A stretch of 25,511 bases of DNA from a virus: the IMG/VR virus record IMGVR_UViG_3300035183_000559, positions 1-25,511 of that record; one strand, given 5' to 3'. Under the pieces are notes generated by a model that saw only the letters and a list, made by a program, of their open reading frames with translations, had not been told where the DNA came from and searched no databases. This document shows positions 1-22,370 of this stretch, piece after piece (the first letter of the stretch is position 1; each line of letters starts with the position of its first letter). Position numbers and translations under genes: made by a program.

Positions 1-328
1 TAGGATTAGGAGTGTATCTACCTCCTACATAATTACCAGCATGATAATGAATAAAGTCTGATGGTAACCTAGACGCTACTACATCTTTAAACTTTTTATT
101 TTTTCTATTCTGAACTAAGCATCTATGATTTTTAGTTACCATTAAATCACACGCAGTATTACTAATATGAACAAGATTAAGTACGTTGTTATACTGCATA
201 TAGGCTAAAGGTTTAACAAAATCTATACGTAAATCTTTATGCCACTGAGCTACTAAATCATCTTTATTCAAACTATCTATACGTACCCATCCACGCAAAG
301 TAAGTAATTCAGTATCTCTAGAATAACA
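1..328 (-). other. N-terminal splicing region of an intein in the DNA polymerase
   Basis: Residues 366 to 474 of the polymerase reading frame. Block A begins with Cys: CYSRDTELLTLRGWVRIDSL matches the pattern of a nucleophilic Cys, DTE, T..G and I..L. It is followed by NKDDLVAQW, where GD.V is usual. Block B is seen as LMVTKNHRCLV with the T..H signature (T430, H433). These blocks are characteristic of Hint-type inteins. GC content by hand count is about 31% over 1-328 against about 46% over 361-660 of the polymerase part, which fits separate acquisition. The C-terminal splice junction (blocks F and G) and any homing endonuclease domain lie beyond the left edge, so splicing competence cannot be judged. 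Confidence 0.88.
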
Positions 329-1423
329 TTGCTGCAAGTTAGGGTCACTACAGGAAAGTCTACCGGTCCTGGCTCCGGCAACTCGGTACGACGGATGCAA
401 TCTACCCGTTTCTGGATTGATCATCTCTACGATGTTCCTGCCGAAACTAGTGCACAGCTTTTTCAGTTTCTGGTATCTGGCGAATGGTTTACAAATATCC
501 AAGTAAGAAAAATCAACCAATGTATGAGCATCCGTCATCAGCTTACCAGTTTCGGTCACTGGCCATATAGCTCTACTAGCTGGTGGTAGCGTTCGCTCCA
601 AATACTCAGCGACTTTAGTATCGGTTATATCATCCAATCCCGTCTGTTGCTTCAAATCTTCAGTAGCTTCTACCAGCTCTTCTCTCCATTTGACTACGTT
701 CTGCATATGGTGCTTTTTGTCGAATGCAATACCATTCAACTCCATGTCCACCAAACCATGCTGAGCTTCGACGTACAGCTTATACACGTTCCAGAGCCCC
801 AATTTCTGCATTTTTGGGGCCAACGTGTCATAGATTCTTTTCACTACTATTGCGTCCGTGGCAGAGTATCTGACCTGTTCGAATGATAACTGCATCACTG
901 ACCAATCAGATGCTCCGGCTCTCTTGTTCAAATCCTCCTTGAACAACGCTTCAGCCATGGCTTCCAAGGAAGCAGACTTTTGTTCGAAATATAAATGGTG
1001 GAGCACGATCCTGGACATGATACACGTGCACTCCATAGGACCGTAATCAACACCATACCACTTTCTCAAAAACTTCAGATCGAATTGCAGGTTATGGAAT
1101 ACGGATGGTCTGGTTTCAAAGAGCGTTCTTATCTTGGCTTTCAGGTCTTCCGTCTGCTCTATTTCAAACATATCGAAGATTGCCACACTTTTACCAGAGA
1201 AGATCTGTAGCAATCGTATACGCGATCTATACGGGTCTAACGCAGCTTTATCATTCCCTTTGTATTTAGGTAGCGCACCAGTCTCGGTATCAGCTCCTAT
1301 GATACCGACACCTCGTATGAGCTTATCCAAAGCCTGGTGCGCTGTTTTTACATCCGTAATGAATATACAAGGGTACTCTACAGAGTTATACGTAACGCTG
1401 AATTCTCTAGGTAAAGTACCCAT
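1..1423 (-). CDS. polA: Family A DNA polymerase with 3'-5' exonuclease, interrupted by an intein (partial, runs off left edge)
   Basis: Replicative phage DNA polymerase of the Pol I/T7 gp5 family. The frame stays open from the ATG at 1423 to the left edge, giving 474 visible residues. The N-terminal DnaQ-like exonuclease shows Exo I (GADTE, D45 and E47), Exo II (HNLQFD, D115) and Exo III (YSATD, Y186 and D190). A polymerase thumb follows, then GARTGRLSCSDPNLQQ (about 350-365), the conserved stretch just before polymerase motif A. At C366 the protein switches to an intein instead of continuing as the usual IP. The finger and palm parts lie outside the window. An in-frame TAG lies 18 nt upstream, so 1423 is the first ATG in this frame. 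The start is 7 nt after the stop of the ssDNA-binding protein gene, so the gene closes the replication operon as seen here. No close Shine-Dalgarno is visible, and translation may be coupled. Confidence 0.93.
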   Translation of the reverse strand, partial: MGTLPREFSVTYNSVEYPCIFITDVKTAHQALDKLIRGVGIIGADTETGALPKYKGNDKAALDPYRSRIRLLQIFSGKSVAIFDMFEIEQTEDLKAKIRTLFETRPSVFHNLQFDLKFLRKWYGVDYGPMECTCIMSRIVLHHLYFEQKSASLEAMAEALFKEDLNKRAGASDWSVMQLSFEQVRYSATDAIVVKRIYDTLAPKMQKLGLWNVYKLYVEAQHGLVDMELNGIAFDKKHHMQNVVKWREELVEATEDLKQQTGLDDITDTKVAEYLERTLPPASRAIWPVTETGKLMTDAHTLVDFSYLDICKPFARYQKLKKLCTSFGRNIVEMINPETGRLHPSYRVAGARTGRLSCSDPNLQQCYSRDTELLTLRGWVRIDSLNKDDLVAQWHKDLRIDFVKPLAYMQYNNVLNLVHISNTACDLMVTKNHRCLVQNRKNKKFKDVVASRLPSDFIHYHAGNYVGGRYTPNP

Positions 1424-2109: not shown

Positions 2110-3300
2110 TCAACACTCACTGTCATCGTCAAAAGCATCGAGCATACTGGTAGCATCAGGTAGTGCTGGTCTACTATCGTCTTCCAGCACTACCAATGGA
2201 GCACCTTTTTTAACAGTAAGATGATCCACTTTACCTTTACCGAGCAGCTTTTCAGCTTCACCAATGCCAATGACTTTTTTCTTCCAAGGCTCCTGTAGTC
2301 CGAGAAGTTCGAGCTCTTTCATCGCAGCTTCATCGTCTATCCATCTTCGTTTAACCGTACCCTCGACCACTTTCAATCCTTTCACTGGATTGCCCTGCTT
2401 GAATCTCCACAATGCGTGCTTCCTCGTCTGAGAAATGAAATTCTCGACCAACCTACCATATCGGATGACCTTGACTATCTGTTCATCCGTCGTAGCCGTC
2501 ACCGTTGGAAGCTCGACGGCATCCATGCCTTCCAAATCTACCTCGATCTTCCTGCTGATATCTTTCTTGAAAGCCGTACATACGGGCTTGGCTTTACACC
2601 ATTCACACCATTCCCCTACTTTGAATTTAGGTTTCGGTGATCGTGACGCATTGATGGCTTTTATGTATCTGGCTCTGGCTTTCTCTAGCTGGCTTCGCTT
2701 GAACCAATGATACGTATAGGGCTCTTCGTGCGTTGGTTGATACACGCAGCATTTGGCTCTGGCTACTTTCAGCTTTGGATGTTTCTTCTCTATCATGTCC
2801 ATCGCACAAACCGAATAGAAAATGAATTGTTCGGAATCCGGCTCTACACGATGGTATCCAGTCTTGATATCGATTATTTTTATTATCAGTTCACCTTTAT
2901 CATCGTATTGTACTATCAATACGTCGGCAGTACCTCCGGCATCCAACTCTTCCGAAAGCATTAGTTTCTTTTCAAGCAGTATTTGCTTACCGGTGACTAT
3001 CTCTTCCAAGTCTTCCTTCCACAAAGTATTCCAGTAATTGTCAACGAATTCTTTGACGTCTGGTTCCAAGTCTCGTTGCTCTCGTCTCGGTGTACCTTTG
3101 TACAGATGGTCCAACTCCATCCGTACCCTGCTTTCACACAACGCATGGATATAGGTTCCTCTTTCAGCAGCTTTACTCGGTGGAATGTCCGGTAGCGTTG
3201 CGACCAGACTAGCCCAGCCATGACAATTGACCCATATATGACTAGTGCTTCCACCATACCTATGGTGTTTTTTCTCCTCTATGGATATCACATCATTCAT
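2110..3300 (-). CDS. DUF2800-type PD-(D/E)XK (RecB/Cas4-like) nuclease
   Basis: About 396 residues. The N-terminus (STSHIWVNCHGWASL) and the early GTYIHALCE motif (H52) are typical of DUF2800/RecB-like phage nucleases. The catalytic core is seen as GGTADVL (D126) followed by IIDIKTGYH (D144 and K146), and then a Gln motif (EQFIFYS). A later Cys group, GEWCEWCKAKPVC (C232, C235, C241), resembles the metal or Fe-S cluster Cys of Cas4/AddB nucleases, but a fourth ligand is not obvious. The start at 3300 is chosen over a longer frame because AGGAGG lies 4 nt upstream and the ATG overlaps the previous stop (ATGA), a coupled junction. It probably processes DNA ends or recombination intermediates during replication. 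Confidence 0.85.
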   Translation of the reverse strand: MNDVISIEEKKHHRYGGSTSHIWVNCHGWASLVATLPDIPPSKAAERGTYIHALCESRVRMELDHLYKGTPRREQRDLEPDVKEFVDNYWNTLWKEDLEEIVTGKQILLEKKLMLSEELDAGGTADVLIVQYDDKGELIIKIIDIKTGYHRVEPDSEQFIFYSVCAMDMIEKKHPKLKVARAKCCVYQPTHEEPYTYHWFKRSQLEKARARYIKAINASRSPKPKFKVGEWCEWCKAKPVCTAFKKDISRKIEVDLEGMDAVELPTVTATTDEQIVKVIRYGRLVENFISQTRKHALWRFKQGNPVKGLKVVEGTVKRRWIDDEAAMKELELLGLQEPWKKKVIGIGEAEKLLGKGKVDHLTVKKGAPLVVLEDDSRPALPDATSMLDAFDDDSEC

Positions 3301-4190
3301 ACCGCCTCCTCTATCAGCTCGATCAATTTCGCGCATTGAGCATCTCGCGCGGATTTCCATCCGGCTTTCCAGGCAGGCTCCCACATAAGCTCCCATGCAG
3401 CCGTCCACGTCAACTTTCCCACCCATTCCTTCGCTGCGAGCCAGACTGCGTCCCTTGCTAGAGCAATTGCAGCTTCCCATGCAGCACGCCTTGCTGCGTA
3501 CGTAGCCCATTCGTTGACCGTAGCCTTTGCTGCTTCGATCGCAGCTTCACGAGGAGCGAGCATGACTGCGGCTCCGATCGTACCCTCCTTTATTTTAACC
3601 GCAGCATTCCACACAGCATTCCACGCGACATCTCTAGCTGCTTTCTTTGCTGCGACGATGGCCGCGTCACGTGCTGCGGTCTTTATCGATTCCATCACAG
3701 CTTCGAACGCAGCATTTCTGATGGCATCCCACGCTGCTGACCTCATCTCCTCACATTCTTCATCCTTCGCTACCATCGTATATGCATCATGAGATACCGC
3801 CCTCACTGTATCACGTAATACACGCATCACTACGTCATCGACTGCTTTCCACGCCAATGCACGTGTTTCCGACGATTCGTCTCTCGCTGCGATCAGCTCT
3901 TCTCTGGTAGCCTTTCCTTGTATGAAGTCTTCCGCAACTTCGATAGCACGCTTTGCACTATCATCAGGAAACCATTGCTCCACTTGCTTCGCACACCATA
4001 TCGCAAAGCGACGCAGGGTTTTTGTATCTATCAAGGTTTCTCTACACACCAATAGCAATTTGTCTTCGAATGGCATCAAAGGAATTTTCAAAATATCGAC
4101 GACCGTACCACTCCATCGATCAGGAAAATAGTTTTCTAAATAACTTGGAATGACCAGATCGAGATTATCATTTATCGTCACTGTCTTCAT
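3297..4190 (-). CDS. Ala/Trp-rich helical repeat protein, downstream copy of a tandem pair
   Basis: 297 residues. The first 105 or so form a conserved globular part: DRWSGTVVDILK, MPFEDKLLLVCRETLID, LRRFAIWCAKQVEQW and AIEVAEDFIQGKATREEL. The rest is a long run of Ala-rich helical repeats with regularly spaced Trp (AAWEAA, AAWELMWEPAWKAGWK). The next gene upstream is a paralogue, identical at roughly 60% of positions over the first 105 residues. Similar Ala/Trp repeat proteins occur in phages and bacteria, some labelled putative immunity proteins, but I know of no proven function. The last codons (Glu-Glu-Ala-Val) are GAGGAGGCGGTA and double as the Shine-Dalgarno of the nuclease gene, which overlaps by ATGA. 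Its place in the replication operon suggests a role with helicase and nuclease, or host interference. That is inference. Confidence 0.85.
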   Translation of the reverse strand: MKTVTINDNLDLVIPSYLENYFPDRWSGTVVDILKIPLMPFEDKLLLVCRETLIDTKTLRRFAIWCAKQVEQWFPDDSAKRAIEVAEDFIQGKATREELIAARDESSETRALAWKAVDDVVMRVLRDTVRAVSHDAYTMVAKDEECEEMRSAAWDAIRNAAFEAVMESIKTAARDAAIVAAKKAARDVAWNAVWNAAVKIKEGTIGAAVMLAPREAAIEAAKATVNEWATYAARRAAWEAAIALARDAVWLAAKEWVGKLTWTAAWELMWEPAWKAGWKSARDAQCAKLIELIEEAV

Positions 4191-5071
4191 GCCGCCTCCT
4201 CTATCATCCTAATCAATGTCCCACATTGCTGATTCCTCACGAATTCCCATTTGTCTTTCCACGTGGCTTTCCACGTAGCTATCCACAATGTACTCACCAC
4301 CAAACCCCTCGCTGCCATCCGAACAGCATGCCTCGATAGAGCAAGCGCTGATTCCCATGCAGCACACCTAGCTGCATCCGTAGCAGATTCCATCACTGTA
4401 GCTTTTGCTGCTTCCATCGCAGCTTCCCAGTCACCATAGTGACATCTGACCCCAGGTGAATCGCTGACTGATCTCACCACAGCTTCATATGCAGTCTCCC
4501 GTGCAGCATCTCTAGCTGCTTTCATCACTGCTACCTCGATCACGTCAGAGACAGCCTTTCTGGCAGCTTCCATCGCAGGCTCCCATGCCGCATGTTTGAC
4601 CGCTTCCAACTTCGCTGACCTCATCGCCTCGCATGCTTCATTCTCTGCTATCAGCTCAGCTACACGACGAGATGCAATCCTCACTGCCTCGTCTGCTTCA
4701 CACCTCATTGCTGCGTCGACTTCATGCTTCACTGAATTCCATGCCCTGTCACACAATCGATTCCTCACTTCGATCAGTTCTTCTCTGGTCGCCTTTCCTT
4801 GTATGAAGCTCTCCGCAACGTCGATCGCATGTTTCGAAAGGTAATCAGATGACAAGTAACCAACCCCTCTAGCGCACCATATCGCAAAACGACGCAGGGT
4901 GTTTGCATCGATCAAGTCTTCTCTACACACCACTAGCAATTTGTCTTCGAACGGCATCGTAGGAAGTTTCAAAACATCGAGAACGGTACCACTCCATCGA
5001 TCAGAAAAATGTTTCGTTATTTCGTCCGGAACATTCCAGTTACGCATATCATCGATCGTCACTGTCTTCAT
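4187..5071 (-). CDS. Ala/Trp-rich helical repeat protein, upstream copy of a tandem pair
   Basis: 294 residues, paralogous to the gene that follows it. It shares DRWSGTV, MPFEDKLLVVCREDLID, LRRFAIWCA and FIQGKATREELI. The C-terminal two thirds are Ala-rich helices, more diverged and with fewer Trp than the other copy. One stretch (SVSDSPGVRCHYGDWEAA) breaks the repeat pattern. The start ATG overlaps the helicase stop (ATGA), with AGAGG about 7 nt upstream. The final Glu-Glu-Ala-Ala codons carry GAGGAGGC and serve as the ribosome site for the next copy, which also starts with an ATGA overlap. The pair probably arose by duplication together with its translation signal. Function unknown. Confidence 0.85.
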   Translation of the reverse strand: MKTVTIDDMRNWNVPDEITKHFSDRWSGTVLDVLKLPTMPFEDKLLVVCREDLIDANTLRRFAIWCARGVGYLSSDYLSKHAIDVAESFIQGKATREELIEVRNRLCDRAWNSVKHEVDAAMRCEADEAVRIASRRVAELIAENEACEAMRSAKLEAVKHAAWEPAMEAARKAVSDVIEVAVMKAARDAARETAYEAVVRSVSDSPGVRCHYGDWEAAMEAAKATVMESATDAARCAAWESALALSRHAVRMAARGLVVSTLWIATWKATWKDKWEFVRNQQCGTLIRMIEEAA

Positions 5072-6734: not shown

Positions 6735-9317
6735 ATGAACGACAATACACCAACCATTCCAGGAACGCAAGCACTTGCTTCATTCATTACACCTTTCAAC
6801 TATTCATTGGTCACCATTTCAGTACAGATAGATGGATCACATCCATTCGTCCCTTTACAAACTGCTCATTTCAACATCACCAAAAACGGAAAGTTCACAC
6901 ACGCTTTTACACCGGAGGAGCTTTGTACTCAAGAAACATACAGAGAACTACTCACCATTCAGAAAGAGACACGTAGAGCTATCTACTTCACGCCAAATGA
7001 AGGTAACGGTATTGCCGATCAGTACGGCAACTCAGCGAAAGCGTCCAACATCACTACGTTCAAAGCACTCTTCATCGATGACGATGGCAACCGGCTACCT
7101 GTAATCCTCGAATACCTTTCCAGATACCGCCTCAAGCCGCACTTCATCATAAAGACGTCCAAAAACAAACATCATATCTACCTGCTTTTGACCGATACAC
7201 CAGTCACCGATGAGTCTCGTCTTCAATGGAAAGCAGTACAGAAAACGCTGTCGTATCTGGGGGATTTCTCATCCCAGCCAGTTACTGATTCATCCATGGA
7301 TGACATCAATCAATTGCTACGGCTACCTTCGTTCTACAATCTCAAAAACCCAACGGAACCATACAAGGTCACCATTCACGCATCTTCCAATCACCCGAAA
7401 TACCTTTTACCGGACATCTATACGGCCTTGAATGCCCAAAGGGCGTTAGACCATCTCTCTGTCAGCACCTTGCATGCAGCAGGGCTTACCGGGCCTGACA
7501 TCGATCCCATATCGTATTCCTATGAACCATACAAAACTCCTGAGGGCTTTCTACCTACAGGCTCCCGTAGACCGTACTGCAAAAAGTTCATCGACCATCT
7601 CCTAGAAAACACGATCAAACTAGAGGACCATGAATTCCTCGATAATTCGTTGATCGGTTTCGTCTTCAACCACATCGCCCCCACGTATCCCGATGGCTCT
7701 ACTCGTAACGATTATCTACCCGGCGGTAGAGTCTGGAAAAACCTCATGCAGTACAAGCATGATGCGATCAGAGCCAGAAAAGAGCGGTATTTACAAAAAA
7801 TATCGCTGGCAGCATCCAAAACATTGGAAGATTTGCAGGCTTTGAACGATGAAACACTACCAGATACGTTCTACCTCGATTTCCCTGGTCCCGTCGGTAT
7901 GCTGGTACGTGAATTTCACGCTGCTTATTCATTCATTCCATTGGAAGTCATCTTTGCAGCGTCTCTCATGCTATCGGGTTATTTGAAAGCTCATACATAT
8001 CGATTGAAAAATTCCTGGGCCATGCTAAACGGTGTCATCGTGTCACAGTCTGGTTCAGGTAAGTCTACCATCCTCAGCGCCATTCGAAGTCTTTTATCCC
8101 GTTTCGATATCGAATCCAAATACTCCGGCTATCTACAAGAACCAGCCTCAGTACAGGTTCTTCACGATCAGGTATACCGGTGTGGTGGTGTAGCAACTTT
8201 AGCCCTGGACGAATCGTCAGGGTTTCTCACCAAGCTCTACAACACCAAATCTCAAAACTACGAGACAGCCGTCAGGACTTACATGAAAGAGTCTACTACG
8301 GCTCCCGGAGGCAATGGCACCTATTTCACCTGTCCTGCATCTCGTGCATTCGAAGCGGAAGCGATTACGAATGGTTTGGTAGCGTACTGGTTTTACATAC
8401 AACCTCAGTACTTCGATAAAATCTTCCAACCGCATGATGTCAGTGACGGCTTTCTGGCTCGTTTTCTGATGTTCAAAGTTCCAAAGCAGGAAGAAACCAT
8501 CGATCTGACCGTAGAACGCAAAAGCCCTTCATATGAACCAAGCCCGGAAGTGCTCATGTGGGTAGAGTCTTTGTTGAAAAGACGGCCTCTCTTCACTCGT
8601 TCGAGTATTCGGGAATTCATGGAAAACACAGTTGCCATGGCCCCAGTACAGGGTAGTTCAAACAGTCGAGACGCCATCAGAAAAGCTCACCTATTTGCCG
8701 AAAGAGCGTTGGTAGATACCAAGAAAGCAGAAATACTCGATCCCGAAGGCTTCGTAGACCTTCGACTTTCACCAAAGGGAGAGGAGATGGTATCCACGTA
8801 TATATCCCTCGTCAATTCTCTCAATACAGCAGCAGTCAAAGCTCACAGAGACATCAGCGGTGATGATGAATCGGAAGCACCAGAGTCTTCCTTGTACCTA
8901 AGACAGCGGGAGATGCTGTGTCGCATGATCGCCGTCTGCTCCAATGTCGTGGATTCTAGTAGTACGACTGGCCTCGTGGATGACGAGATAGTGTTTCATT
9001 GCACTAAATACATGGAATTCAATCTCTTGAGGTTCATCAAAAAAGGCGGATTCGAGATCATAACGGAATCCGAAGAAGACAAATGCGAGAGATACCTAGT
9101 AAAAGCAATCTTGAAAGCCAAAAGAACGAGTGCAGACGGATGGGTTACGATCAATCAAATAGCAAAAGCGCTCTCGTACAGGTTTAGAACAGAGTTTAGT
9201 AACTGGCGTAAAGTTTTAGAGAGAATGGCTAAAGAAGGTAACATCGTCACACTATTTCAAGACAGGCACCGAGTGACCGGAAAGCCTATCCTCAAATATA
9301 CGGTGATACAGGATTGA
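6735..9317 (+). CDS. Primase-helicase: RepB-like primase domain plus DUF3987-type ATPase
   Basis: 860 residues. The N-terminal part looks like an archaeo-eukaryotic/RepB-type primase: ALFIDDDGNR (acidic residues 115-117), KPHFIIKTSKNKHHIYLLL (about 134-152) and INQLLRLPSFYNLKN. The middle carries a DUF3987-like P-loop domain: SQSGSGKST (Walker A, about 437-445) and TLALDESSG (Walker B, about 490). The C-terminus (about 780-860) looks like a winged-helix region (DGWVTINQIAKALSYRFRTE). It likely unwinds DNA and lays primers for the family A polymerase encoded across the divergent promoter. AGGAGG lies 6 nt before the ATG. It is transcribed toward the AT-rich, repeat-containing region that may be the origin. 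Confidence 0.87.
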   Translation: MNDNTPTIPGTQALASFITPFNYSLVTISVQIDGSHPFVPLQTAHFNITKNGKFTHAFTPEELCTQETYRELLTIQKETRRAIYFTPNEGNGIADQYGNSAKASNITTFKALFIDDDGNRLPVILEYLSRYRLKPHFIIKTSKNKHHIYLLLTDTPVTDESRLQWKAVQKTLSYLGDFSSQPVTDSSMDDINQLLRLPSFYNLKNPTEPYKVTIHASSNHPKYLLPDIYTALNAQRALDHLSVSTLHAAGLTGPDIDPISYSYEPYKTPEGFLPTGSRRPYCKKFIDHLLENTIKLEDHEFLDNSLIGFVFNHIAPTYPDGSTRNDYLPGGRVWKNLMQYKHDAIRARKERYLQKISLAASKTLEDLQALNDETLPDTFYLDFPGPVGMLVREFHAAYSFIPLEVIFAASLMLSGYLKAHTYRLKNSWAMLNGVIVSQSGSGKSTILSAIRSLLSRFDIESKYSGYLQEPASVQVLHDQVYRCGGVATLALDESSGFLTKLYNTKSQNYETAVRTYMKESTTAPGGNGTYFTCPASRAFEAEAITNGLVAYWFYIQPQYFDKIFQPHDVSDGFLARFLMFKVPKQEETIDLTVERKSPSYEPSPEVLMWVESLLKRRPLFTRSSIREFMENTVAMAPVQGSSNSRDAIRKAHLFAERALVDTKKAEILDPEGFVDLRLSPKGEEMVSTYISLVNSLNTAAVKAHRDISGDDESEAPESSLYLRQREMLCRMIAVCSNVVDSSSTTGLVDDEIVFHCTKYMEFNLLRFIKKGGFEIITESEEDKCERYLVKAILKAKRTSADGWVTINQIAKALSYRFRTEFSNWRKVLERMAKEGNIVTLFQDRHRVTGKPILKYTVIQD

Positions 9318-11736: not shown

Positions 11737-12327
11737 TTAGACTAGGGTTCCGTCCTCTAAGAATTCGTATTTGTTGGTGATGATGGTTTCTTCTATGTAT
11801 TTGTCCGAATAGATATAGTTTTCTTCGTCATATGCGATGTTCATTAGTGCGTTTTTTAAATCTGTCATGATGTCATCATAGGTAGACTCCCACGGTTCAT
11901 TGAATAGCATCTCGTGCAATGCTTTACCTTTGTTAGAATTCACATACTTCAATTCTCCCATGACATAAGCCAATCTGTCTTTGGTGCTTTCGGTTAGGTA
12001 TTTCGATAGTTTTTTACGATACAGCAAATCCAAGTATATTCCATATAGGTCAGCATCGAAGGATACTTTACACGTGTCTCGATACGTATCCATATGGTCT
12101 ATATTCATGTTGTATATGACGTTGTTTTTGATGTGTTCACGCAGGTACATGGGTAGATAATCATAGTCAGCAATCGAACCATCGTTAACGTCATCAAACA
12201 TTTTTTCTAGAAACAATCGCATATCCTCATTCAATGCATCTTCGTGGATGTCCCGATAGCATTCTATGGCGTGTTTTCGCGCATCTTCGGATAGTTCATG
12301 GTATTGGTATGTTTTTTCGTTTTTCAT
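11737..12327 (-). CDS. Accessory protein type A', last gene of the paralogous cassette
   Basis: 196 residues. The N-terminus (KTYQYHELSEDARKHAIECY) belongs to a motif widespread in phages (Y.F.ELSEEA...AIE.), usually annotated as hypothetical. The central part (DADLYGIYLDLLYRKKLSKY), YVNSNKGKALHEMLFNEPWE and the ending FLEDGTLV are shared almost word for word with the 200-residue gene at the start of the cassette. It starts directly behind a structured repeated leader with AAGGAGG five nt before the ATG. No catalytic motif is visible. Function unknown. Confidence 0.85.
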   Translation of the reverse strand: MKNEKTYQYHELSEDARKHAIECYRDIHEDALNEDMRLFLEKMFDDVNDGSIADYDYLPMYLREHIKNNVIYNMNIDHMDTYRDTCKVSFDADLYGIYLDLLYRKKLSKYLTESTKDRLAYVMGELKYVNSNKGKALHEMLFNEPWESTYDDIMTDLKNALMNIAYDEENYIYSDKYIEETIITNKYEFLEDGTLV

Positions 12328-12461: not shown

Positions 12462-13016
12462 TTAACGATTTTCGTTTTTTAGTTTCGCATCGACATCAAT
12501 ACCGTAACTATTCATGAGCCAGTGTATGAAGTATGCGCGCTTATCCTCTATTGATTCAAATTGTAGTGGTGGTAGGTCTTTGAATGGTACCTTAGCGCCG
12601 TGTTTAGTTGCTAGTATATTGAGATCGTACACATCAGATTCAATCGATCTTAGTAACGGTTTGATGTCTGATTCGGATGTTTTGAGTAGTTCGATAGTTC
12701 TTGATAAGTCATTAGCTGTCCTGTCGGCAATAAATTGCTTAGCATCCTTCCATTTGTATGGAACATGGCTTAAACAGCAGAAAGTTATATACCATTCTGT
12801 ATTATTTTTTATACTAGTAGCGAATAGTTTATACCTTTCTGGTGTAGGGAATATGTATAATTCTTCTTCCGGATTATATGTGTTTCTGTAAAGTCTTGCT
12901 ATTTGAAACGTAGGATCTTCTGGATCATAATAAATGCGTTTGCGTACATATGGTATAGGCGTTTCCTTAGCACTCAGCACGTTGGTTGAATTGCTTGCTA
13001 TAGTTTCGTTTTTCAT
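12462..13016 (-). CDS. Accessory protein type B', short paralogue
   Basis: 184 residues from the ATG at 13016 behind AAGGAT; a GTG-started reading adds eight residues that merely translate the ribosome site. It is related to the 298-residue gene upstream: shared starts (KNETIA, RNETIA), QIARLYRN/EIARLYQN, W.DAK..IA, LA..HGA and WLM..YGIDV.AK..NE. It ends where the longer paralogue's C-terminal domain begins, so it looks like a truncated duplicate lacking about 95 residues. No remnant of the missing domain is seen downstream. Function unknown. Confidence 0.8.
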   Translation of the reverse strand: MKNETIASNSTNVLSAKETPIPYVRKRIYYDPEDPTFQIARLYRNTYNPEEELYIFPTPERYKLFATSIKNNTEWYITFCCLSHVPYKWKDAKQFIADRTANDLSRTIELLKTSESDIKPLLRSIESDVYDLNILATKHGAKVPFKDLPPLQFESIEDKRAYFIHWLMNSYGIDVDAKLKNENR

Positions 13017-13113
13017 AGTTTCATCCTTACAGTCATACACATTTACATAGTTTTTAGGTCAGGCATCCGAAGCGGTAGACTATGATTAGAATAGTTTTTA
13101 TCGCTTCGGATGC
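13017..13113 (-). promoter_or_regulatory. Structured leader repeat, copy 2
   Basis: The same leader before gene B'. The stem arms are 13063-13077 and 13099-13113, with one G-T pair where copy 1 has A-T. The loop keeps CATAGTC (minus strand), while its partner is ACTATT instead of ACTATG. The linker AAAAACTATGTAAATG and the GGATGAAACTATG start region are conserved. Confidence 0.75.
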
Positions 13114-13169: not shown

Positions 13170-14066
13170 TCATTGATTGAATAACCTATTTACTTCCGAT
13201 AGCGGTATTCGGTGACATCCTATGTTTATTGTATCGTTTGTTACTTCGGAGACCGTAAAACCACCGATCGTAGCGTTGCGTATGTCCTCTCCGGCTTGCA
13301 GACGCTTGAATAGCGCTTGAGCTTCGGTCAAAGGTACGTTTGCTCCGTGCGATGTCTCGATTGTATCGCCCTTGATTCTTAGCATTACTGGGCAATCGTA
13401 TATGGGATAGTGATACTCATGGTTACGCCATCTTGTTAGGGTTTCGGTTTTCTCTAATGCTCTCTGTTTTAATTCGGCCTCATACTTTTCATTTAGTTTA
13501 CGGCTTATTGTTCGTTCGTTTTCGATCTTAGCAATGACATCGATACCGTATCTGGTCATGAGCCACCGAGCGATAGCATCGATCTGATCTGATTCCGATC
13601 CATGTTCGGTTGATGGCAGACTATCTATCGATATGTTGGCACCATGCTCGATTGCCAGTCTTTTAAGATCGGTTACTAAAGCCAGTAAGTAAGACAATTG
13701 ATATGTGAATCCTGATCGGGAGCGTTTGATACGTTCGATATGCTTTACTATCTGCCCCATCACGTCATTGGCAATCACGTGTTTAGCATCATCCCAATCG
13801 AGCGGAATACCGCGCATCTCGCAAGTAACAACGTACGATTCGAGATGCTTTGTTGCGTAAGGGATATGCGTTTGATGTTTGCCTTTCGTTGTGATGCTAT
13901 ACGAATATGATGTGTACACCGCTATCGTGTTATTCTGATACAGCCGCGCTATTTCGGTTCTGTAACTGTATAACCTTGTACGGTCATACCAAAACGAACC
14001 GTTATGGTTTTTCCCGTAGGGCTTTACTTGGTTTGCCCAGCGATGTGCTATAGTTTCGTTTCTCAT
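13170..14066 (-). CDS. Accessory protein type B, two-domain paralogue
   Basis: 298 residues from the ATG at 14066 behind AAGGAT (a GTG reading adds eight). The N-terminal ~190 residues match the shorter B' protein. The C-terminal part, after a charged helix (SRKLNEKYEAELKQRALEK), carries IETSHGANVPLTEAQALF and a closing INIGCHRIPLSEVNRLF. That C-terminal pattern (ETS.GA.VPL ... GCH.I) recurs in phage proteins of unknown role. No enzymatic motif is evident. It sits second in the minus-strand cassette, behind leader copy 3. Confidence 0.82.
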   Translation of the reverse strand: MRNETIAHRWANQVKPYGKNHNGSFWYDRTRLYSYRTEIARLYQNNTIAVYTSYSYSITTKGKHQTHIPYATKHLESYVVTCEMRGIPLDWDDAKHVIANDVMGQIVKHIERIKRSRSGFTYQLSYLLALVTDLKRLAIEHGANISIDSLPSTEHGSESDQIDAIARWLMTRYGIDVIAKIENERTISRKLNEKYEAELKQRALEKTETLTRWRNHEYHYPIYDCPVMLRIKGDTIETSHGANVPLTEAQALFKRLQAGEDIRNATIGGFTVSEVTNDTINIGCHRIPLSEVNRLFNQ

Positions 14067-14160
14067 AGTTTCATCCTTACAATTGTACACATTTACATAG
14101 TTTTTAGGTTAAGCATCCGAAACGATAGACTATGATTAGAATAGTTTTTATCGTTTTAGA
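14067..14160 (-). promoter_or_regulatory. Structured leader repeat, copy 3, overlapping the end of gene A
   Basis: The third copy precedes gene B and its distal stem arm overlaps the last codon and stop of gene A. The arms are about 14117-14127 and 14149-14159. Compared with copy 1 the stem shows a paired change (G-C to A-T in GAAACG/CGTTTT), which supports selection on base pairing. The outer end of the stem has decayed, as the gene's 3' codons occupy it. The linker and start region are conserved. Confidence 0.7.
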
Positions 14161-14758
14161 TTAGGGTTCCGTCCTCTGAAAACACGCACGCGCTGTCGGT
14201 AAGCAGATCTTCTATGAAGAGGTCTGAATATACATGTTCCTCTCTGTCACGTATGATGCACGCCAGCGCGCTTTGCATGTCTGTTCTGATCCTTTCCCTG
14301 ATTCTTTCATAGGTAGATTCCCACGGTTCATTGAATAGCATCTCGTGCAATGCTTTACCTTTGTTAGAATTTACATAGTTCGCTGTTCCCATAACACGGG
14401 CTAACCTGTTTTTGGTGCTATTGGTTAGGTACTTCGATAGTTTTTCATTATATAGCAAATCCGAGTATATTACACCAAGATCAGCATCAAAGGATACTTT
14501 GCATATACCTTTATAAGGATCAGTAACCTTTACAGACATATTATATATGACGTCGTTTTTGATGTGTTTACGTAGGTACATGGGTATATAATCATAGTCA
14601 ACAATCGAACCATCGTTAACAGCATCCAATATGTTATCAAGAAACGATTCGAAGCATGTTTTTAGTATGTCTTCGTGCTTATCGCGAAAGTATTCGATGG
14701 CGTTTTTTTGAGCATCTTCGGATAGTTCATGGTATTGGTATGTTCTTTCGTTTCTCAT
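14156..14758 (-). CDS. Accessory protein type A, first gene of the paralogous cassette
   Basis: 200 residues, paralogue of the last gene of the block. Shared stretches include TYQYHELSEDA, DGSI.DYDY.PMYLR.HIKN, KVSFDADL, YVNSNKGKALHEMLFNEPWE and EDGTLI. The N-terminal ELSEDA motif is common in phage proteins without known function. The start is behind GAGAGGAAACT; unlike the other three genes it lacks the long leader repeat. Instead it follows a sigma70-like promoter (14833-14861) and a different hairpin. It is likely the promoter-proximal gene of a four-gene unit. Confidence 0.85.
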   Translation of the reverse strand: MRNERTYQYHELSEDAQKNAIEYFRDKHEDILKTCFESFLDNILDAVNDGSIVDYDYIPMYLRKHIKNDVIYNMSVKVTDPYKGICKVSFDADLGVIYSDLLYNEKLSKYLTNSTKNRLARVMGTANYVNSNKGKALHEMLFNEPWESTYERIRERIRTDMQSALACIIRDREEHVYSDLFIEDLLTDSACVFSEDGTLI

Positions 14759-15810: not shown

Positions 15811-15948
15811 ATGTACTGTAATTGTGCTTGGTATACCTGTAGCCCGTGCTCTTTCAGAGCATACAGGCCGGTAGTACAGTTCGTTCCGGTATGGTGGAAC
15901 TATTGGACGTTTCCGTGTAATCGTGTGAACTACGCTTCGTGTTGTTAG
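15811..15948 (+). CDS. 45-residue Cys/Trp-rich microprotein
   Basis: A short gene with a strong ribosome site (TTGGAGG, 5 nt before the ATG), 12 nt after the preceding membrane-protein gene. The product has seven Cys (CxC at 3-5, CxxC at 10-13, C36 and a final CC) and four Trp in 45 residues, with a PVVQFVPVWWNYW centre. Cys pairs suggest metal binding or disulfides, perhaps in a virion or secreted setting like the Cys-rich capsid and structural genes downstream. Its stop overlaps the end of the convergent terminase gene by 4 nt. No family is recognised. Confidence 0.62.
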   Translation: MYCNCAWYTCSPCSFRAYRPVVQFVPVWWNYWTFPCNRVNYASCC

Positions 15949-17807
15949 TTTTTTACCCACACGACATCCTCAGTAGAGGATGTGAACGAGGCTTCTAGTG
16001 CTGGTTGCATAGATGTCGAATCGTTCTGGCGTGAAGCCTGGTTGCTTATAAAGACTCTATACTTCTCTTGCCATCTCAAGCCACCGGAATGTATCGGTCT
16101 CGTAGCTCCTGGTGTAAGACCTGCTCTGTAGAGTGCTGCCATGACGCAGAGAATGGCTGAGTCTGCTTCATTGGGAGAGTGGGCATTTTTGGGGCTTATG
16201 GCAGCCATTCTGTTGATGTAGTCTGCTTTGTACTCCAGTACTTCCTTGTTACCTTTTTCCAGTATTCTTCTGTTCACTATTTGACTTATCGTTTTATCAT
16301 CCAGCCCTCTTACTTGTTTATGCTGGATGAACTTTCGTAGAAGTACCCACATTTCTATGGGTGGTAGGTAGACTAGGGTATCATCTTTGTTTTTTATGAT
16401 ACTACCATTGGTTGATACTATTTTCAGAGGAGTATACTCTGTACGCATCTTGAGCTTCAGTAGTTCACCCAAGGCTCTACCGATACCAGTGGCATCCAAA
16501 GCCAGATAGTTGAGTGAACAATTATATTTATTCATGTAGTGATTGACCTGCTCGGCTATCTGTAGTTCTGCCGAGGATTCTGCTCCTTGATGGATGACGA
16601 TATAATGCATGAGCTGGTCATACATGAAATCGATGACCATTTGCCCGTTGGTAGTGTGGCCTATCAATGCAAATCTCAATACACACCCTTTACTACCGGT
16701 AGATACGGCTGGGTCCAAGCCTGCTACTACCGTTAGAGGATAGAGACCAGACCACTCTGCTCTATGAGTAACCTTGGATTCTTCTATGAATTGAGGAGAT
16801 AGTATCACCTTCTCCAAAGACTTTGGTCTCCAGAAGCCTAGAACGAAGCGATAGAAGGCGTCTGAGTCTACTCCGTACGTTTGGATTTTTTCTGCTATAC
16901 CTTCCTCCGTTATCAGGAATTTAGATAAAGCAGCTTTTTTTATAGGGTCTGTTTCTCGTATGGCTGGGGAGTCGTACGGAGAGAAATAAAGGCAAATGCC
17001 GTTTTTATGTGTAGTTCTCCATTTTTTATGTGTTTCTGGAGATACCGATTCCCAGCCGTCTTGTGGTGTTGCCAAGGCCCCGTGTAGATCGTTTTTATCA
17101 GAAGAGTTACCGATACCGAAAAGCTGAAAGAAAGGGGTACCCTGTTCTAGGTTTGGGAGAGCTTTTACTAAGTTAGTGGATATATCCGTACACTCGTCCA
17201 GTACGAGCATGAGACCGTCATCTGGGTGGCGTCCGATCAATGTGGAGAGCGTTCTTTCCGTGTCACCTTCTCTGATGGCAGTAGCAAACATGCCATGTAT
17301 TTTATCTTTGGAGCCTGGATATATTACTTTTGGTGGTTTACCTCCTAGTACCTGGCATGGTAAGGGTACTTGGGTATTTTCTACCAGCTTGACCACGTAG
17401 CCCCATATACGAGACTCCAGTGAATCGAGTGTAGTGGAGGATATGACGGCAGATCGTTTTTTAGGGGAAGCCAGCCACCAGAGTAGTGCTATCTTTGCTA
17501 CTGTCATGGACTTACCCACACCAGCACCAGCGGCCAGTATGACATGCGTCCAGCCTTCGCAGTGAGCACGGAACATCTCTTCTTGCCAGTAATTATTTGT
17601 AAGTACCATGTACGGCCAGATATGGTCGTGAGCTTTCATCATGTTTTCTAGCTTGACCTCTGGAGCCACGGCATCCTTGTAGAGTTTTAGATACACTTGG
17701 TAAGGATGGCATAAAGGCAGTTTCAGACCATTGACTTCGATGGTATTATCTACATTGACTTGCCAGCCCTCTGCCAAGCATAGTTCTTTCAAGGATTTTT
17801 TATTCAT
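15945..17807 (-). CDS. terL: Terminase large subunit (TerL)
   Basis: 620 residues, the motor and nuclease that packages DNA into the procapsid. The ATPase shows Walker A LAAGAGVGKS (91-100), Walker B LMLVLDE (199-205, E205 catalytic) and a coupling-motif region near FGIGNSSD. The RNase H-like nuclease has GLDPAVSTG (D365), YLALDATGIG (D438) and NEADSAIL (D549), the three acidic metal ligands. Length is normal for the family. It is on the minus strand although the portal and capsid genes are on the plus strand. Its start codon overlaps that of the plus-strand neighbour within a shared CATG. GGAAG lies about 11 nt upstream, inside that neighbour. Confidence 0.93.
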   Translation of the reverse strand: MNKKSLKELCLAEGWQVNVDNTIEVNGLKLPLCHPYQVYLKLYKDAVAPEVKLENMMKAHDHIWPYMVLTNNYWQEEMFRAHCEGWTHVILAAGAGVGKSMTVAKIALLWWLASPKKRSAVISSTTLDSLESRIWGYVVKLVENTQVPLPCQVLGGKPPKVIYPGSKDKIHGMFATAIREGDTERTLSTLIGRHPDDGLMLVLDECTDISTNLVKALPNLEQGTPFFQLFGIGNSSDKNDLHGALATPQDGWESVSPETHKKWRTTHKNGICLYFSPYDSPAIRETDPIKKAALSKFLITEEGIAEKIQTYGVDSDAFYRFVLGFWRPKSLEKVILSPQFIEESKVTHRAEWSGLYPLTVVAGLDPAVSTGSKGCVLRFALIGHTTNGQMVIDFMYDQLMHYIVIHQGAESSAELQIAEQVNHYMNKYNCSLNYLALDATGIGRALGELLKLKMRTEYTPLKIVSTNGSIIKNKDDTLVYLPPIEMWVLLRKFIQHKQVRGLDDKTISQIVNRRILEKGNKEVLEYKADYINRMAAISPKNAHSPNEADSAILCVMAALYRAGLTPGATRPIHSGGLRWQEKYRVFISNQASRQNDSTSMQPALEASFTSSTEDVVWVKN

Positions 17808-18369
17808 GTTGAAGTTTCTTCCTTTTATAGCTCCTAAAGAGTTTGTCTTTAGAGACCCAGATACCGATTATGAGTATAGAGCCAATACCAAAGAAGCTCT
17901 GATCAAGCATATCGTATCATACAGAAGCCAGAATGGATTGGAACCGATCGAGCATTTGAATGTAGTCTTGGAAAACTACTGGTGCAGTTTACCCGAGAAC
18001 GTGGGCAGTTGTCAGGAGTATAAGTTGCAACGAGGCTGGTTTGCTACGTGGAGGGGTGCCGTTCAGGTAGTGAAAAACGTATTCTATGGAGAAGACAATC
18101 TGGTCGAACCGGAGGAAGCCGACAGGAGAGCCGGTATTTGTGTCAAATGTCCTGAAAATGTTTTCCCAGACAAGGGCCCCTTCATAGCATGGAGTGATGA
18201 ATTGGCTCAAGCGTCTACTGGTGGTAGAAAGAGTAAGCACTATAATGAATTGGGGAATTGCGCCATATGTAGCTGTCCGTTGAAAGCTAAGGTATGGGCT
18301 AAACATGCGAAACTCACTGAAGATGAGAATCTGAAAGCCCCAGATTTTTGTTGGCAGAAAAGAGTATGA
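17806..18369 (+). CDS. Cys-rich putative zinc-binding protein upstream of the portal
   Basis: 187 residues from the ATG at 17806 (AAGGA 10 nt upstream); longer readings run antisense into the terminase. The N-terminus (MLKFLPFIAPKEFVFRD) leads to NGLEPIEHLNVVLENYWC, a helical part with SCQEYKLQRGWFATWRGA, and then two Cys groups: ICVKC (112-115) and CAICSC (152-157), plus C182. The spacing suits a treble-clef or zinc-ribbon site. It is encoded between terminase and portal, with its stop overlapping the portal start (ATGA), so a packaging or head-assembly role is plausible. No specific family is claimed. Confidence 0.75.
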   Translation: MLKFLPFIAPKEFVFRDPDTDYEYRANTKEALIKHIVSYRSQNGLEPIEHLNVVLENYWCSLPENVGSCQEYKLQRGWFATWRGAVQVVKNVFYGEDNLVEPEEADRRAGICVKCPENVFPDKGPFIAWSDELAQASTGGRKSKHYNELGNCAICSCPLKAKVWAKHAKLTEDENLKAPDFCWQKRV

Positions 18370-20768
18370 CGAGCATTACAGATTTTTATGGTGGTCGAAG
18401 ACTGGAAGTGACGGATGCTGGGGTAGAGATTCCCAAGCAGGTCATAAACACGGTAGCTGCCGCTAAGAGCATCTATTTCAAGCTGAGAAACAATCACATA
18501 AAGCGGATCATGCTGTATGCTGAGATAAATGGCATGATAGCCGGTAATGCTCCTTATGATGTCAATAAACTCAGGGAAGCAAATCTAACGCATATAAGCA
18601 ATTTCAACACGTTGGAGCCTAGGAGCTTGTATGAAAGAGCAGGGCTTGCGTATTGGAATCTTCTCTTCACCTCAGAAAAGATAATCAACTTCACCTTTCG
18701 CTATCCTGGAGTACCGGAGGCCAGCCACTATGCTGAAATAGTGGGTAGGCATTGGGATAGAGTAGTGAGAACCATGTGGAGGAGTTTCGATACGAACGTA
18801 GCTGTTTTGTGTGGGCAGTTAGTCAAATTCGGGATATCTCCAATCATCTGGCCTGATGAGAACGAGATGCATTGGAGAGTGGTAGAACTAAGTAAGTTTT
18901 ACGTAGCAGACCAGTCTGCGTCCGATCTGGATTTACTTAGTATTGCTTGTGTCGAGACGGAAGTCGCTATCGTCTATTTGATGGAAGTATTCAATGAGTA
19001 TAGAAATAGACGTAACGAAACGGATTGGAATATCGATCAGCTCGAAAAGTTTTTGATCTGGATAGCGAACAATGTGAATAAAGACCCTCTGGCAGTCTAT
19101 GACCAAACAGAGCTGGAAAGAAAGCTATCTGCTGGAGACATATCGTACGATAGGATGTATAACGAGACCGTTCGTTTGGTGAGTCTTTATTATAAAGAAA
19201 ACGACGGTACCATCACTCATTTCATGTTTCATAGAGATTGGGATGATGGAGGAGAATTTCTCTACAAGAACAAAAGCCAGTATAGATCGTTCGATGATTG
19301 TTTACTGATATTCACTCAGTCGCCTGGTGAGCAGTTCATACATGGAAACAGAGGCATTGGACACAAAGTATTCAGCATATGTCAAGCCAAGATGATGTTG
19401 GACAATAGCTTGGTCGACATGGCTAGGTGGAGCAGTACTCCCATACTCAAATCCCCTGCAATGACCGTCAAAGACTCGGAACAGGTACGTTTCTACCCAG
19501 GAGTACCAACGTACATAGGTAGTTCTGAATTCGTGCAAAACAATCTTGGTGCAAATCTTCAAGGCGTGATTGCCACGAGCCAGTATTTCTCTAATCTGCT
19601 TCAGCAGAATGCTGCGTTTTCTGGTGATGATCCTGGGGTTCAAGACAGGTCTCTGGGAAGCCTGTCTCCATCCCAGACGAGGTTGCAAGCGTTCAAAGAG
19701 TTTGGAGTTTTGAGAAACCAGGTAAACCATTTCTATAGTACCTTCGATGTGCTCCTGCGTCAGATGGTCATTAGGATGGTCAATGCTACTTCAATGGAAA
19801 AAACGTACGATATATTCCAGGAATGGAAAGAACGTTGTGTTCAAGATGGTGTTCCTGAAGAGCTATTCAAACCTAGAAAGAAAGGAATGCTACCCCAGTA
19901 CTGGGAAGTACATGCAACGAGAAGCGCTGGTGCTGGTAGTCAGGTAGCAGAGATCATTGCGTTGCAGGAGCTACAGCCATTGGTTGGAAGTTTCGGAAGA
20001 AGGGAACAAGAAGCGTATAAACGGGACTATATCAAAGCTACTGTTGGGGCTGATAGGGTTGCAGCATACACGCAAGATAGCCAGGATGTCGATGAAGTTG
20101 GTGGTGGTGCTTCGTTGGCAGGTCTGGAAAATACTGTGATGCAAGACGGTAAGTCTCCATTGTTCAGCCCAGCCAATGATCATAGAAGCCATGTGGCGAT
20201 TCATTTGGCTTTGGCTAATCAAATCATACAAGGAATTACTGAACAACAAATAGACGTAGTACAGGCCGATAGGGTATTTACTGTATTGATTCCTCACCTA
20301 CAGGAGCACATGCAGGCTCTATCGCAAAATATATTTGCTCAAGCCTTCGTGCAGCAGATACAAAAAACCGTAGGAGGTGTGATTCAGTATGCTCAAGTCA
20401 ATCGTAGAAATGCCGTTAGAGCACTAGAGGCCAAACGAAAACAGGAGATGGAAGACGTAGAGAACACTCGACGAGTAATGACTGAACAAGAGAGGGAAGA
20501 TTATAAGGTTCAGAAAGACGAGGCTAGAAAAGACTTCAAGTTGATGGCACAAGAGAAGCGTGTCAATGAAGCCAATAGGAAGCGAGCAGAGACGCTCCAG
20601 CAAAAAACAGATGCTACGGTACAAGCAATCAGAGAGAAAACGAGAGCGCAGGTTGCAGCTATAAATAAGAAGGAGAATCCTAGCATCGAGAGAACCAATG
20701 CTAGTGAAGAATTGTCGAATATGACGAATGGTAGTACTCCAACACCTTACGATTTCGAGCCGCAATAA
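18366..20768 (+). CDS. Portal protein
   Basis: 800 residues from the ATG at 18366, which overlaps the previous stop; a TTG reading at 18348 is less likely. The first 550 residues look like a large phage portal, forming the dodecameric ring through which DNA enters the head: an alpha/beta stretch with FGISPIIWPDENEMHWRVVE, RGIGHKVFSICQAKMMLDNS, and a helical stem/crown region around SLSPSQTRLQAFKEFG. About residues 680-775 form a long charged coiled coil (KRKQEMEDVENTRRVMTEQE and on), similar to the barrel extension of large podovirus-type portals. Context after terminase and before scaffold and capsid supports the call. No single diagnostic motif exists for portals. Confidence 0.82.
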   Translation: MTSITDFYGGRRLEVTDAGVEIPKQVINTVAAAKSIYFKLRNNHIKRIMLYAEINGMIAGNAPYDVNKLREANLTHISNFNTLEPRSLYERAGLAYWNLLFTSEKIINFTFRYPGVPEASHYAEIVGRHWDRVVRTMWRSFDTNVAVLCGQLVKFGISPIIWPDENEMHWRVVELSKFYVADQSASDLDLLSIACVETEVAIVYLMEVFNEYRNRRNETDWNIDQLEKFLIWIANNVNKDPLAVYDQTELERKLSAGDISYDRMYNETVRLVSLYYKENDGTITHFMFHRDWDDGGEFLYKNKSQYRSFDDCLLIFTQSPGEQFIHGNRGIGHKVFSICQAKMMLDNSLVDMARWSSTPILKSPAMTVKDSEQVRFYPGVPTYIGSSEFVQNNLGANLQGVIATSQYFSNLLQQNAAFSGDDPGVQDRSLGSLSPSQTRLQAFKEFGVLRNQVNHFYSTFDVLLRQMVIRMVNATSMEKTYDIFQEWKERCVQDGVPEELFKPRKKGMLPQYWEVHATRSAGAGSQVAEIIALQELQPLVGSFGRREQEAYKRDYIKATVGADRVAAYTQDSQDVDEVGGGASLAGLENTVMQDGKSPLFSPANDHRSHVAIHLALANQIIQGITEQQIDVVQADRVFTVLIPHLQEHMQALSQNIFAQAFVQQIQKTVGGVIQYAQVNRRNAVRALEAKRKQEMEDVENTRRVMTEQEREDYKVQKDEARKDFKLMAQEKRVNEANRKRAETLQQKTDATVQAIREKTRAQVAAINKKENPSIERTNASEELSNMTNGSTPTPYDFEPQ

Positions 20769-21118
20769 TGTTTATCGAAGATTTGATAAAATCAGAAGAG
20801 AGGCAGAAACTACTGTTGGCTGCTTTGTCTAATTTATATCAGTGTGGGTATTTCCCTGCTGCATTGGAATTGGCGATGACACGTGCCGGTATAATAGACG
20901 GACCGGACGTCACTGAAAGAGCAGCTATCCAAAGAGGCTTCATAGAAGGTTATAAAGAAGCCTTGATGGATTTATATCATTTCAACGAGCGTTATGTATT
21001 GGGCGCCAAACAAAGCTCCACGAAAGCAGATTATGGAGCATTGAGCGCTTTGGTAGCACAAGGTGTACTAACGAAGGAAGAAGCCGATGGAATCGCAACA
21101 GCCAATAAACCCAAATAA
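20768..21118 (+). CDS. Small helical virion-region protein
   Basis: 116 residues. The ATG overlaps the portal stop by one base (TAATG), so translation is coupled. Mostly helical and mildly acidic (SEERQKLLLAALSNLYQCGY, AAIQRGFIEGYKEALMDLYH), with a closing ALSALVAQGVLTKEEADG that resembles short helical segments of head-assembly proteins. It could be a head completion or portal-associated factor. I do not recognise a family. Confidence 0.8.
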   Translation: MFIEDLIKSEERQKLLLAALSNLYQCGYFPAALELAMTRAGIIDGPDVTERAAIQRGFIEGYKEALMDLYHFNERYVLGAKQSSTKADYGALSALVAQGVLTKEEADGIATANKPK

Positions 21119-22370
21119 TGCAATGCTCCCGCCTCAGGGTAGTCAATCCGTGACTGCATCTGCGATCATGGGTACTCTCAAACCTGCTGATGATCCTTTG
21201 GATTTCATCAAGCAAAACTTGAGGAGTACTCCTGAGCCGGTACAAGTAGTGATACAGCAGGACATACCTACACAAGTAGTTACTCCTCCTCCTTCTGCTA
21301 GCACAGGTCAGTCGACAGAAACACCTCAATCAAAACCTGTAGAAACCAAAGAGGGAGAACAGCCTTCCAATGATCTGCTTTCGTCAGTGACGAAAGAGAA
21401 ACCTACCAAAGAGCAGTCGCTGGCACATCTTCGCAAGAAAGCAGAAAGTTTTGAAAATCTCGCCAAGCAGCATGAAGCGAAAGTTTTGGAACTAGAGGCG
21501 GAAGTAGCTAGGTTGAAGAAGCTCGAAGAAGACGAGCTGCCCAAAGTAAAGGATAGAGTAAAAAGTTTAGAGCATTATGAAAAGCTATACGCACTAGAGC
21601 TATCTCCAGAGTATCAGGAGCAGTATCTAAAACCTATCGAACAAGCCAAGGAACGTCTGAAAGCCATTGGTGCTGAGTATGAGATACCTCAGGACATAAT
21701 GGAACAGGCCAGTACCATCACAAATAAAAAACAACTCAATCAGTTTCTCATAGAACACTTCGATGAGTTAGGAGCATTGGAAGTAAAGAATGTAATCAAC
21801 GATATACAGAATCTACAAACGAAAGCCGAACAAGCAAAGAAGCAGCCGGCCATTGCTTTGGAGGAGATGCGCCAGAACGCAGAATCCAGAGAAATGCAAG
21901 ATTTACAAGTGAGGACCCAGAAGATTACGCACAACGCTACTCAAGGATGGATAAAAGCTCTGAATGAACTGAACGCCGAAGACAAGTATCCTGAGCTTAA
22001 AATAGTAGATGGTGATTTCAAGCATAATGAAATTTCTCGACCAATCGTCGAGAACGCGTCCGCAGAGTATGGCAAATTCGTGACGTTATTGGCGCATCTG
22101 GGATTAAAAGAGCTACCGGAAGAAGCCGCTTCCATCATAGCCAAGCGATTTGCCCTTTCTGAAGCGGCATTGGTCATGGCACAAAGCAGGGCGCATCACT
22201 ATAACGCTGCACAAGAACTGATAAACAATTCACGGAGACATGCTCAACTCAATAGACCGCCGATTGGTGGCTATATGAACGTAGAATCTGGTAGTGCTCA
22301 AGGAGCTAGACCCAGCAGTCCAACACATGCTGCTGATATTCTACTTAGTCAGGTATTGAGTAAAAAATAA
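21087..22370 (+). CDS. Scaffold-like coiled-coil protein
   Basis: 427 residues. The start at 21087 lies 32 nt inside the preceding gene, with AAGGAAG about 6 nt ahead; the later ATG at 21123 has no site. The N-terminus is Pro/Gln/Thr-rich and disordered. A coiled coil follows at about 100-160 (AKQHEAKVLELEAEVARLKK), then a long helical middle and a polar C-terminus ending DILLSQVLSKK. This composition and the position directly before the major capsid gene fit an internal scaffolding protein, which guides capsid assembly and is then removed. No protease domain is visible. A terminator-like hairpin follows. Confidence 0.75.
   Translation: MESQQPINPNNAMLPPQGSQSVTASAIMGTLKPADDPLDFIKQNLRSTPEPVQVVIQQDIPTQVVTPPPSASTGQSTETPQSKPVETKEGEQPSNDLLSSVTKEKPTKEQSLAHLRKKAESFENLAKQHEAKVLELEAEVARLKKLEEDELPKVKDRVKSLEHYEKLYALELSPEYQEQYLKPIEQAKERLKAIGAEYEIPQDIMEQASTITNKKQLNQFLIEHFDELGALEVKNVINDIQNLQTKAEQAKKQPAIALEEMRQNAESREMQDLQVRTQKITHNATQGWIKALNELNAEDKYPELKIVDGDFKHNEISRPIVENASAEYGKFVTLLAHLGLKELPEEAASIIAKRFALSEAALVMAQSRAHHYNAAQELINNSRRHAQLNRPPIGGYMNVESGSAQGARPSSPTHAADILLSQVLSKK

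What the first reader, a model, noticed from the sequence alone, without database searches (positions are those of the whole stretch)
1..328. Intein inserted at the DPNLQQ site of a phage family A DNA polymerase
The polymerase frame changes from the conserved pre-motif-A stretch to a Cys-initiated Hint block A (CYSRDTELLTLRG) and a block B with T..H (VTKNHR). GC drops from about 46% to about 31% at the same point. The insertion lies beside the catalytic centre, so the polymerase should be inactive until splicing occurs. Splicing could therefore act as a post-translational switch on genome replication.
Basis: partly seen in the sequence, partly recalled or inferred. Interest (0 to 1): 0.72.

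Follow-up and report, generated by a model that had tools for sequence, protein, structure and literature searches.

The report
Intein inside a phage DNA polymerase
A phage's DNA-copying enzyme gene is interrupted, next to its active centre, by the front half of a self-splicing protein element (an intein), of a kind already known in other phage genes; the contig ends inside it, so splicing and any regulatory role remain unproven.

Summary
Observation confirmed. On the minus strand (1423->2) a family A DNA polymerase reads through its 3'-5' exonuclease and into the conserved TGRLS..DPNLQQ segment, then continues in frame into 109 aa starting CYSRDTELLTLRGW, to the contig end. This is the N-terminal part of an intein: it aligns from its first Cys with inteins in phage NAMPT, ribonucleotide reductase, TerL, PhoH, primase-helicase and polymerase genes (best E 5e-12; score 159 against a shuffled maximum of 49), with block A and the block B TxxH motif. 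GC falls from 44.7% to 31.1% at the junction. The window is the entire IMG/VR record, so blocks F/G, the terminal Asn and the C-extein cannot be read. The closest polymerase relative (46% identity, same phage lineage) is uninterrupted and reads PNFQQ|SPRD, so +1 would probably be Ser, which is compatible with splicing. A second uncultivated phage carries a complete, unrelated intein one codon away (PAFQ|C...HN|TVPK). Vequintavirus polymerases carry a similar intein after motif A. So it is an intein at a recurrent conserved target: a new member of a known kind. 'Inactive until spliced' is a reasonable inference. 'Splicing as a replication switch' has no evidence here.

The parts
329..1423 (-). 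N-extein: family A DNA polymerase residues 1-365 (3'-5' exonuclease plus thumb/palm up to TGRLSCSDPNLQQ)
   Evidence: Pfam DNA_pol_A_exo1 1.2e-19 and DNA_pol_A 2e-14; 46% identity over 364 aa to the intein-free relative L028; residues D45, E47, N111, Y186, D190 kept in all seven polymerases aligned
329..346 (-). DPNLQQ, last six residues before the insertion; Klenow-equivalent site between N678 and I679, 27 residues before catalytic D705 (numbering from own knowledge of E. coli Pol I)
2..328 (-). N-terminal 109 residues of an intein (Hint splicing domain), cut by the contig end
   Evidence: tblastn to phage inteins from residue 1, best E 5e-12; Hint_2 0.0036; shuffles; low-confidence model whose best Foldseek hits are nearly all inteins, none significant
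287..328 (-). Block A: CYSRDTELLTLRGW, Cys1 codon 328-326, Thr at position 6
116..148 (-). Block B: DLMVTKNHRCL, with the TxxH motif (T65, H68)
   Evidence: invariant T and H

Best explanation
The polymerase gene carries an in-frame, Cys1 intein of the family common in phage replication, nucleotide-metabolism and packaging genes, inserted between the positions of E. coli Pol I N678 and I679. Translated as one precursor, it most likely splices autocatalytically: Cys1 thioester, attack by a +1 Ser, Asn cyclization, ligation of ...DPNLQQ to SPR.... This restores the DNA-binding strand before motif A. The missing part is probably about 200-230 aa, with a LAGLIDADG-type homing endonuclease region as in its nearest relative, ending in ...GN. 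Its most likely role is that of a homing element at a conserved target, not a regulator. Shown: N-extein, junction, blocks A and B, empty site in a relative. Inferred: C-terminal half, +1 Ser, splicing, homing.
For: Junction and homology. Nearest inteins are complete, 304-335 aa, ending CGN|T or GN|C, one with LAGLIDADG_3 at 3e-05. The closest polymerase relative, on a 63 kb contig sharing terminase (40%) and another structural protein (35%) with this phage, has an uninterrupted polymerase reading NPNFQQ|SPRDKEFRKSF and no detectable intein. Most other family A polymerases have I/L/V at that position, so Ser in this lineage fits an intein's need for a nucleophile. An unrelated complete intein sits one codon upstream in L054: PAFQ|CCVGETEVV...AVHN|TVPKHTKYA, Intein_splicing 4.4e-12, DNA_pol_A 6e-49; intein-free homologue DLP_5 reads PAFQTIPKH. 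GC drop at the junction.
Against: Blocks F/G, terminal Asn, +1 residue and C-extein are not in the record. The predicted structure is low confidence (mean pLDDT 57.5), with no significant fold match. NCBIfam's intein_Nterm model did not report the fragment, though it scored a clearly homologous complete intein only below its cut-off. No second copy of the same intein at exactly this site was found.
Confidence: 0.88

Rival explanations
1. The splicing step is a regulated post-translational switch: the polymerase stays inactive until a signal permits splicing.
For: The insertion is 27 residues before the motif A aspartate, so the precursor is probably inactive. Kelley et al. (PMC5050341) argue that phage inteins sit in functional motifs with regulatory implications; the Mic1 paper proposes it for TerL (PMC7156551).
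Against: No signal, conditional residue or expression data here. The closest relative manages without the intein. Conserved sites are also what homing alone predicts.
Confidence: 0.06
2. A split intein in a fractured gene: the polymerase N-half and N-intein end shortly beyond the contig, the C-half is encoded elsewhere, and trans-splicing joins them.
For: The fragment ends at about 109 aa, near where split inteins usually divide. Fractured genes with split inteins are known in phages (Dassa et al. 2009, cited).
Against: No stop codon before the contig end. No C-half or motif A sequence elsewhere in the window. The nearest homologues are contiguous.
Confidence: 0.04
3. Assembly chimera: the end of the polymerase contig was joined to an intein from another gene or organism.
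For: The junction lies 328 bp from a contig end, the composition shifts there, and inteins are shared between genes.
Against: The join is in frame and exactly at Cys1, in a motif that takes an unrelated intein one codon away in L054, in a lineage with a splice-compatible Ser at +1. A random join would rarely meet all of these.
Confidence: 0.03
4. A Hint-like relic that cleaves but no longer splices, leaving a split or truncated polymerase.
For: The C-terminal half is unseen, so loss of the terminal Asn or +1 nucleophile cannot be excluded.
Against: Cys1, T65 and H68 are intact; the frame is open; exonuclease motifs are conserved, so the gene is not obviously decaying.
Confidence: 0.04

Closest known systems
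Intein in the DNA polymerase of Vequintavirus FV3-like phages (NHEP1, EPFV3, VB-EcoM-WM)
   Same: Same intein family (39-40% identity over about 85 aa, E 1e-11 to 5e-12) in a polymerase with a DNA_pol_A domain
   Different: Different insertion point: after motif A (GDAH|C...CGN|CNNAK) rather than before it; the polymerase is otherwise very divergent
Intein in the family A polymerase of IMGVR_UViG_3300015371_000003 (L054)
   Same: Same conserved segment, one codon upstream (PAFQ|C...HN|TVP)
   Different: Unrelated intein sequence (score 42, inside shuffle range), 271 aa, with an HNH endonuclease ORF nested in another frame
TerL intein of IMGVR_UViG_3300033141_003018 (L050)
   Same: Closest intein found in viral contigs, 42% identity over the first 79 aa; complete, 335 aa, ends CGN|T
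   Different: Host gene is TerL; LAGLIDADG_3 region present there, unseen here
Group I introns in phage DNA polymerase genes (Pf-WMP3, phiL7, Certrevirus CB7)
   Same: Mobile self-splicing elements at conserved polymerase sites (PMC3428280; PMC7344957)
   Different: RNA-level splicing; here the insert is in frame and encodes a Hint domain

Membership tests
Intein (Hint splicing element) | In-frame insertion at a conserved site of a host protein that exists without it in relatives | tested here: met
   L028 and other polymerases are uninterrupted at the site
Intein (Hint splicing element) | Block A with Cys/Ser at position 1 | tested here: met
   CYSRDTELLTLRGW; the homologous intein matches listed begin at this Cys
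Intein (Hint splicing element) | Block B TxxH | tested here: met
   VTKNHR, T65 and H68 invariant
Intein (Hint splicing element) | Blocks F/G with terminal Asn (usually His-Asn or Gly-Asn) | not testable with these tools
   Contig ends at 109 aa; present in homologues
Intein (Hint splicing element) | Cys/Ser/Thr at +1 of the C-extein | tested here: inconclusive
   Not in this record; Ser at the equivalent position of the closest relative
Intein (Hint splicing element) | Hint fold | tested here: inconclusive
   Low-confidence all-beta model; top 26 Foldseek hits are intein or Hint-like domains but none has E <= 0.001
Intein (Hint splicing element) | Protein splicing activity | not testable with these tools
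   Needs expression or mass spectrometry
Mobile intein (homing endonuclease type) | LAGLIDADG or HNH endonuclease domain | not testable with these tools
   Would lie beyond the contig end; LAGLIDADG_3 in homologue L050
Family A DNA polymerase | 3'-5' exonuclease domain and PolA TGRLS..DPNLQ segment | tested here: met
Family A DNA polymerase | Motifs A, B and C | not testable with these tools
   Would lie in the missing C-extein; not elsewhere in the window; present in L028

The most novel reading that the evidence does not exclude
Splicing of this intein is conditional and times phage genome replication, with the pre-motif-A segment a recurrent intein target because blocking it fully silences the polymerase; or the gene is fractured and the polymerase is made by trans-splicing.
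Probability: 0.08. Interest if true: 0.65.

Novelty: new member of a known kind. Interest (0 to 1): 0.33.

Why it matters
It adds a clear case of an intein beside the catalytic centre of a replicative family A polymerase. With L054 it shows that two unrelated inteins have settled one codon apart in the same segment, and with the vequintaviruses that related inteins have reached a second site in the same kind of enzyme. This makes the polymerase a usable test system for whether phage inteins merely home to conserved DNA or are kept as regulators. It also warns that annotation and assembly of phage polymerase genes can break at inteins.

Tried and rejected
Exact-peptide scans with the polymerase and the terminase in viral contigs found no relatives. 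DNA patterns for [DN]PN[LF]Q-x-C..xDT gave no hit in viral contigs and nine hits in genome contigs; the seven translated lie in very short ORFs (chance), the other two are further Streptococcus infantis contigs. tblastn with terminase, portal-like and capsid-like proteins found nothing in 50,697 phage records. A search for the missing C-extein elsewhere in the window found nothing, so no split gene is visible. An intron was considered and rejected, because the insert is in frame and aligns as a Hint domain from its first residue. The PDB sequence search with the fragment gave only chance hits. Literature: no description of an intein at this polymerase site was found in the held papers; subscription literature and InBase were not searchable.

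Full report
What is in the window. The window is the complete IMG/VR record of 25,511 bases. Its leftmost gene, on the minus strand, is an open frame of 474 aa from 1423 to 2 that runs off the contig end. Residues 61-205 match DNA_pol_A_exo1 and residues 289-377 match DNA_pol_A; it lies next to a Gp2.5-like ssDNA-binding protein and a PD-(D/E)XK exonuclease. The family A segment ARTGRLSCSDPNLQQ is reached at nt 329. The frame then continues, without a stop, as CYSRDTELLTLRGWVRIDSLNKDDLVAQW... to the contig end.

The insert is an intein. tblastn of the 109 aa against 50,697 phage records gives 179 records at E <= 0.01; the listed matches begin at insert residue 1 and lie in well-known intein hosts: NAMPT, ribonucleotide reductase, thymidylate synthase, TerL, PhoH, primase-helicase and DNA polymerase. 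The best E is 5e-12. Against ten intein N-termini the local alignment score is 97-159, and none of 500 shuffles reached it. Block A (Cys1, Thr6) and block B (T65..H68) are conserved. Pfam Hint_2 matches at 0.0036, below its curated cut-off. A model built from four sequences is poor (pLDDT 57.5); its best fold matches are nearly all inteins, but none is significant. GC falls from 44.7% to 31.1% at the junction.

What relatives add. The closest polymerase (46% identity) lies on a 63 kb contig that also shares the terminase (40%) and a structural protein (35%) with this phage. Its gene is uninterrupted and reads GARTGRVSGSNPNFQQ-SPRDKEFRKSF...DFSQIEVR, and no intein was detected in that record. 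So the +1 residue here is probably Ser. In most other family A polymerases retrieved without selecting for this position it is I, L or V, which could not act as a splicing nucleophile; the Ser lineage is one that could host an intein.

Is the site known? Vequintavirus (FV3-like) polymerases carry a similar intein, but after motif A, at GDAH|C...CGN|CNNAK. A broader pattern scan found one other uncultivated phage, L054, with a complete intein in this same segment: TGRLSCKAPAFQ|CCVGETEVV...GIAVHN|TVPKHTKYAQRIRR...DYGQGELR, with both Pfam Intein_splicing (4.4e-12) and DNA_pol_A (6e-49). The first Cys is taken as Cys1 because this places Thr at position 6, and because intein-free homologue DLP_5 reads DPAFQTIPKH. 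Its site is therefore one codon upstream of the window's, and its sequence is not detectably related to this intein (score 42; shuffle maximum 46). Two unrelated inteins have thus reached nearly the same place.

How it most likely works. The nearest complete inteins (TerL in L050, primase-helicase in L051 and L052) are 304-335 aa and end in GN followed by Thr or Cys; L050 contains a LAGLIDADG_3 match. By analogy the missing part here is about 200-230 aa with an endonuclease region and a terminal Asn. The precursor should splice autocatalytically and restore the polymerase. From the family A fold, the insertion separates the exonuclease and thumb from all three catalytic motifs, so the precursor is probably inactive; this is inference. 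A regulatory switch is possible but not supported: the relative lives without the intein, and conserved motifs are also the expected targets of homing.

Limits. The C-terminal half of the intein, the +1 residue and motif A are not in the record, and no C-half is elsewhere in the window. A split intein, a dead intein or a chimeric join cannot be fully excluded, though each needs additional assumptions. Near-identical records may have been withheld from the searches.

Verdict. The finding is a new member of a known kind: an intein in a phage replication gene, at a site close to but not identical with one other case found here. The switch hypothesis remains open.

Noticed in passing
L054:7038-7511 (inside intein 6773-7585): An HNH endonuclease ORF (PHROG 7e-45) is nested out of frame within the polymerase intein, so one stretch encodes both an intein in one frame and a homing-type nuclease in another; compare the 'hidden HNH' of PMC11855218, where no intein splicing domain was found.
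   Followed up: partly
L028:1804-2244: An HNH endonuclease gene (PHROG 3e-48), 47% identical to the nested L054 one, overlaps the end of the intein-free polymerase gene of the closest relative.
   Followed up: partly
3297-4190 and 4187-5071 (-): Two adjacent Ala-rich proteins of 297 and 294 aa beginning MKTVTI are evidently tandem paralogues of unknown function.
   Followed up: no
11737-12327, 12462-13040, 13170-14090, 14156-14758 (-): Two gene pairs look like paralogues (KTYQYHELSEDA... and MY[DN]CKDETM...) arranged A', B', B, A in the direction of transcription, suggesting a duplicated two-gene unit.
   Followed up: no
25067-25511: A 165-bp tandem repeat (2.7 copies) in a long ORF runs into the right contig end, so the right break is in a repeat while the left break is in the intein.
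   Followed up: no
15945-24445: Terminase, portal-like and capsid-like proteins have no tblastn match in 50,697 phage records; only one related contig (63 kb, L028) was found, so this is a poorly sampled phage lineage.
   Followed up: partly
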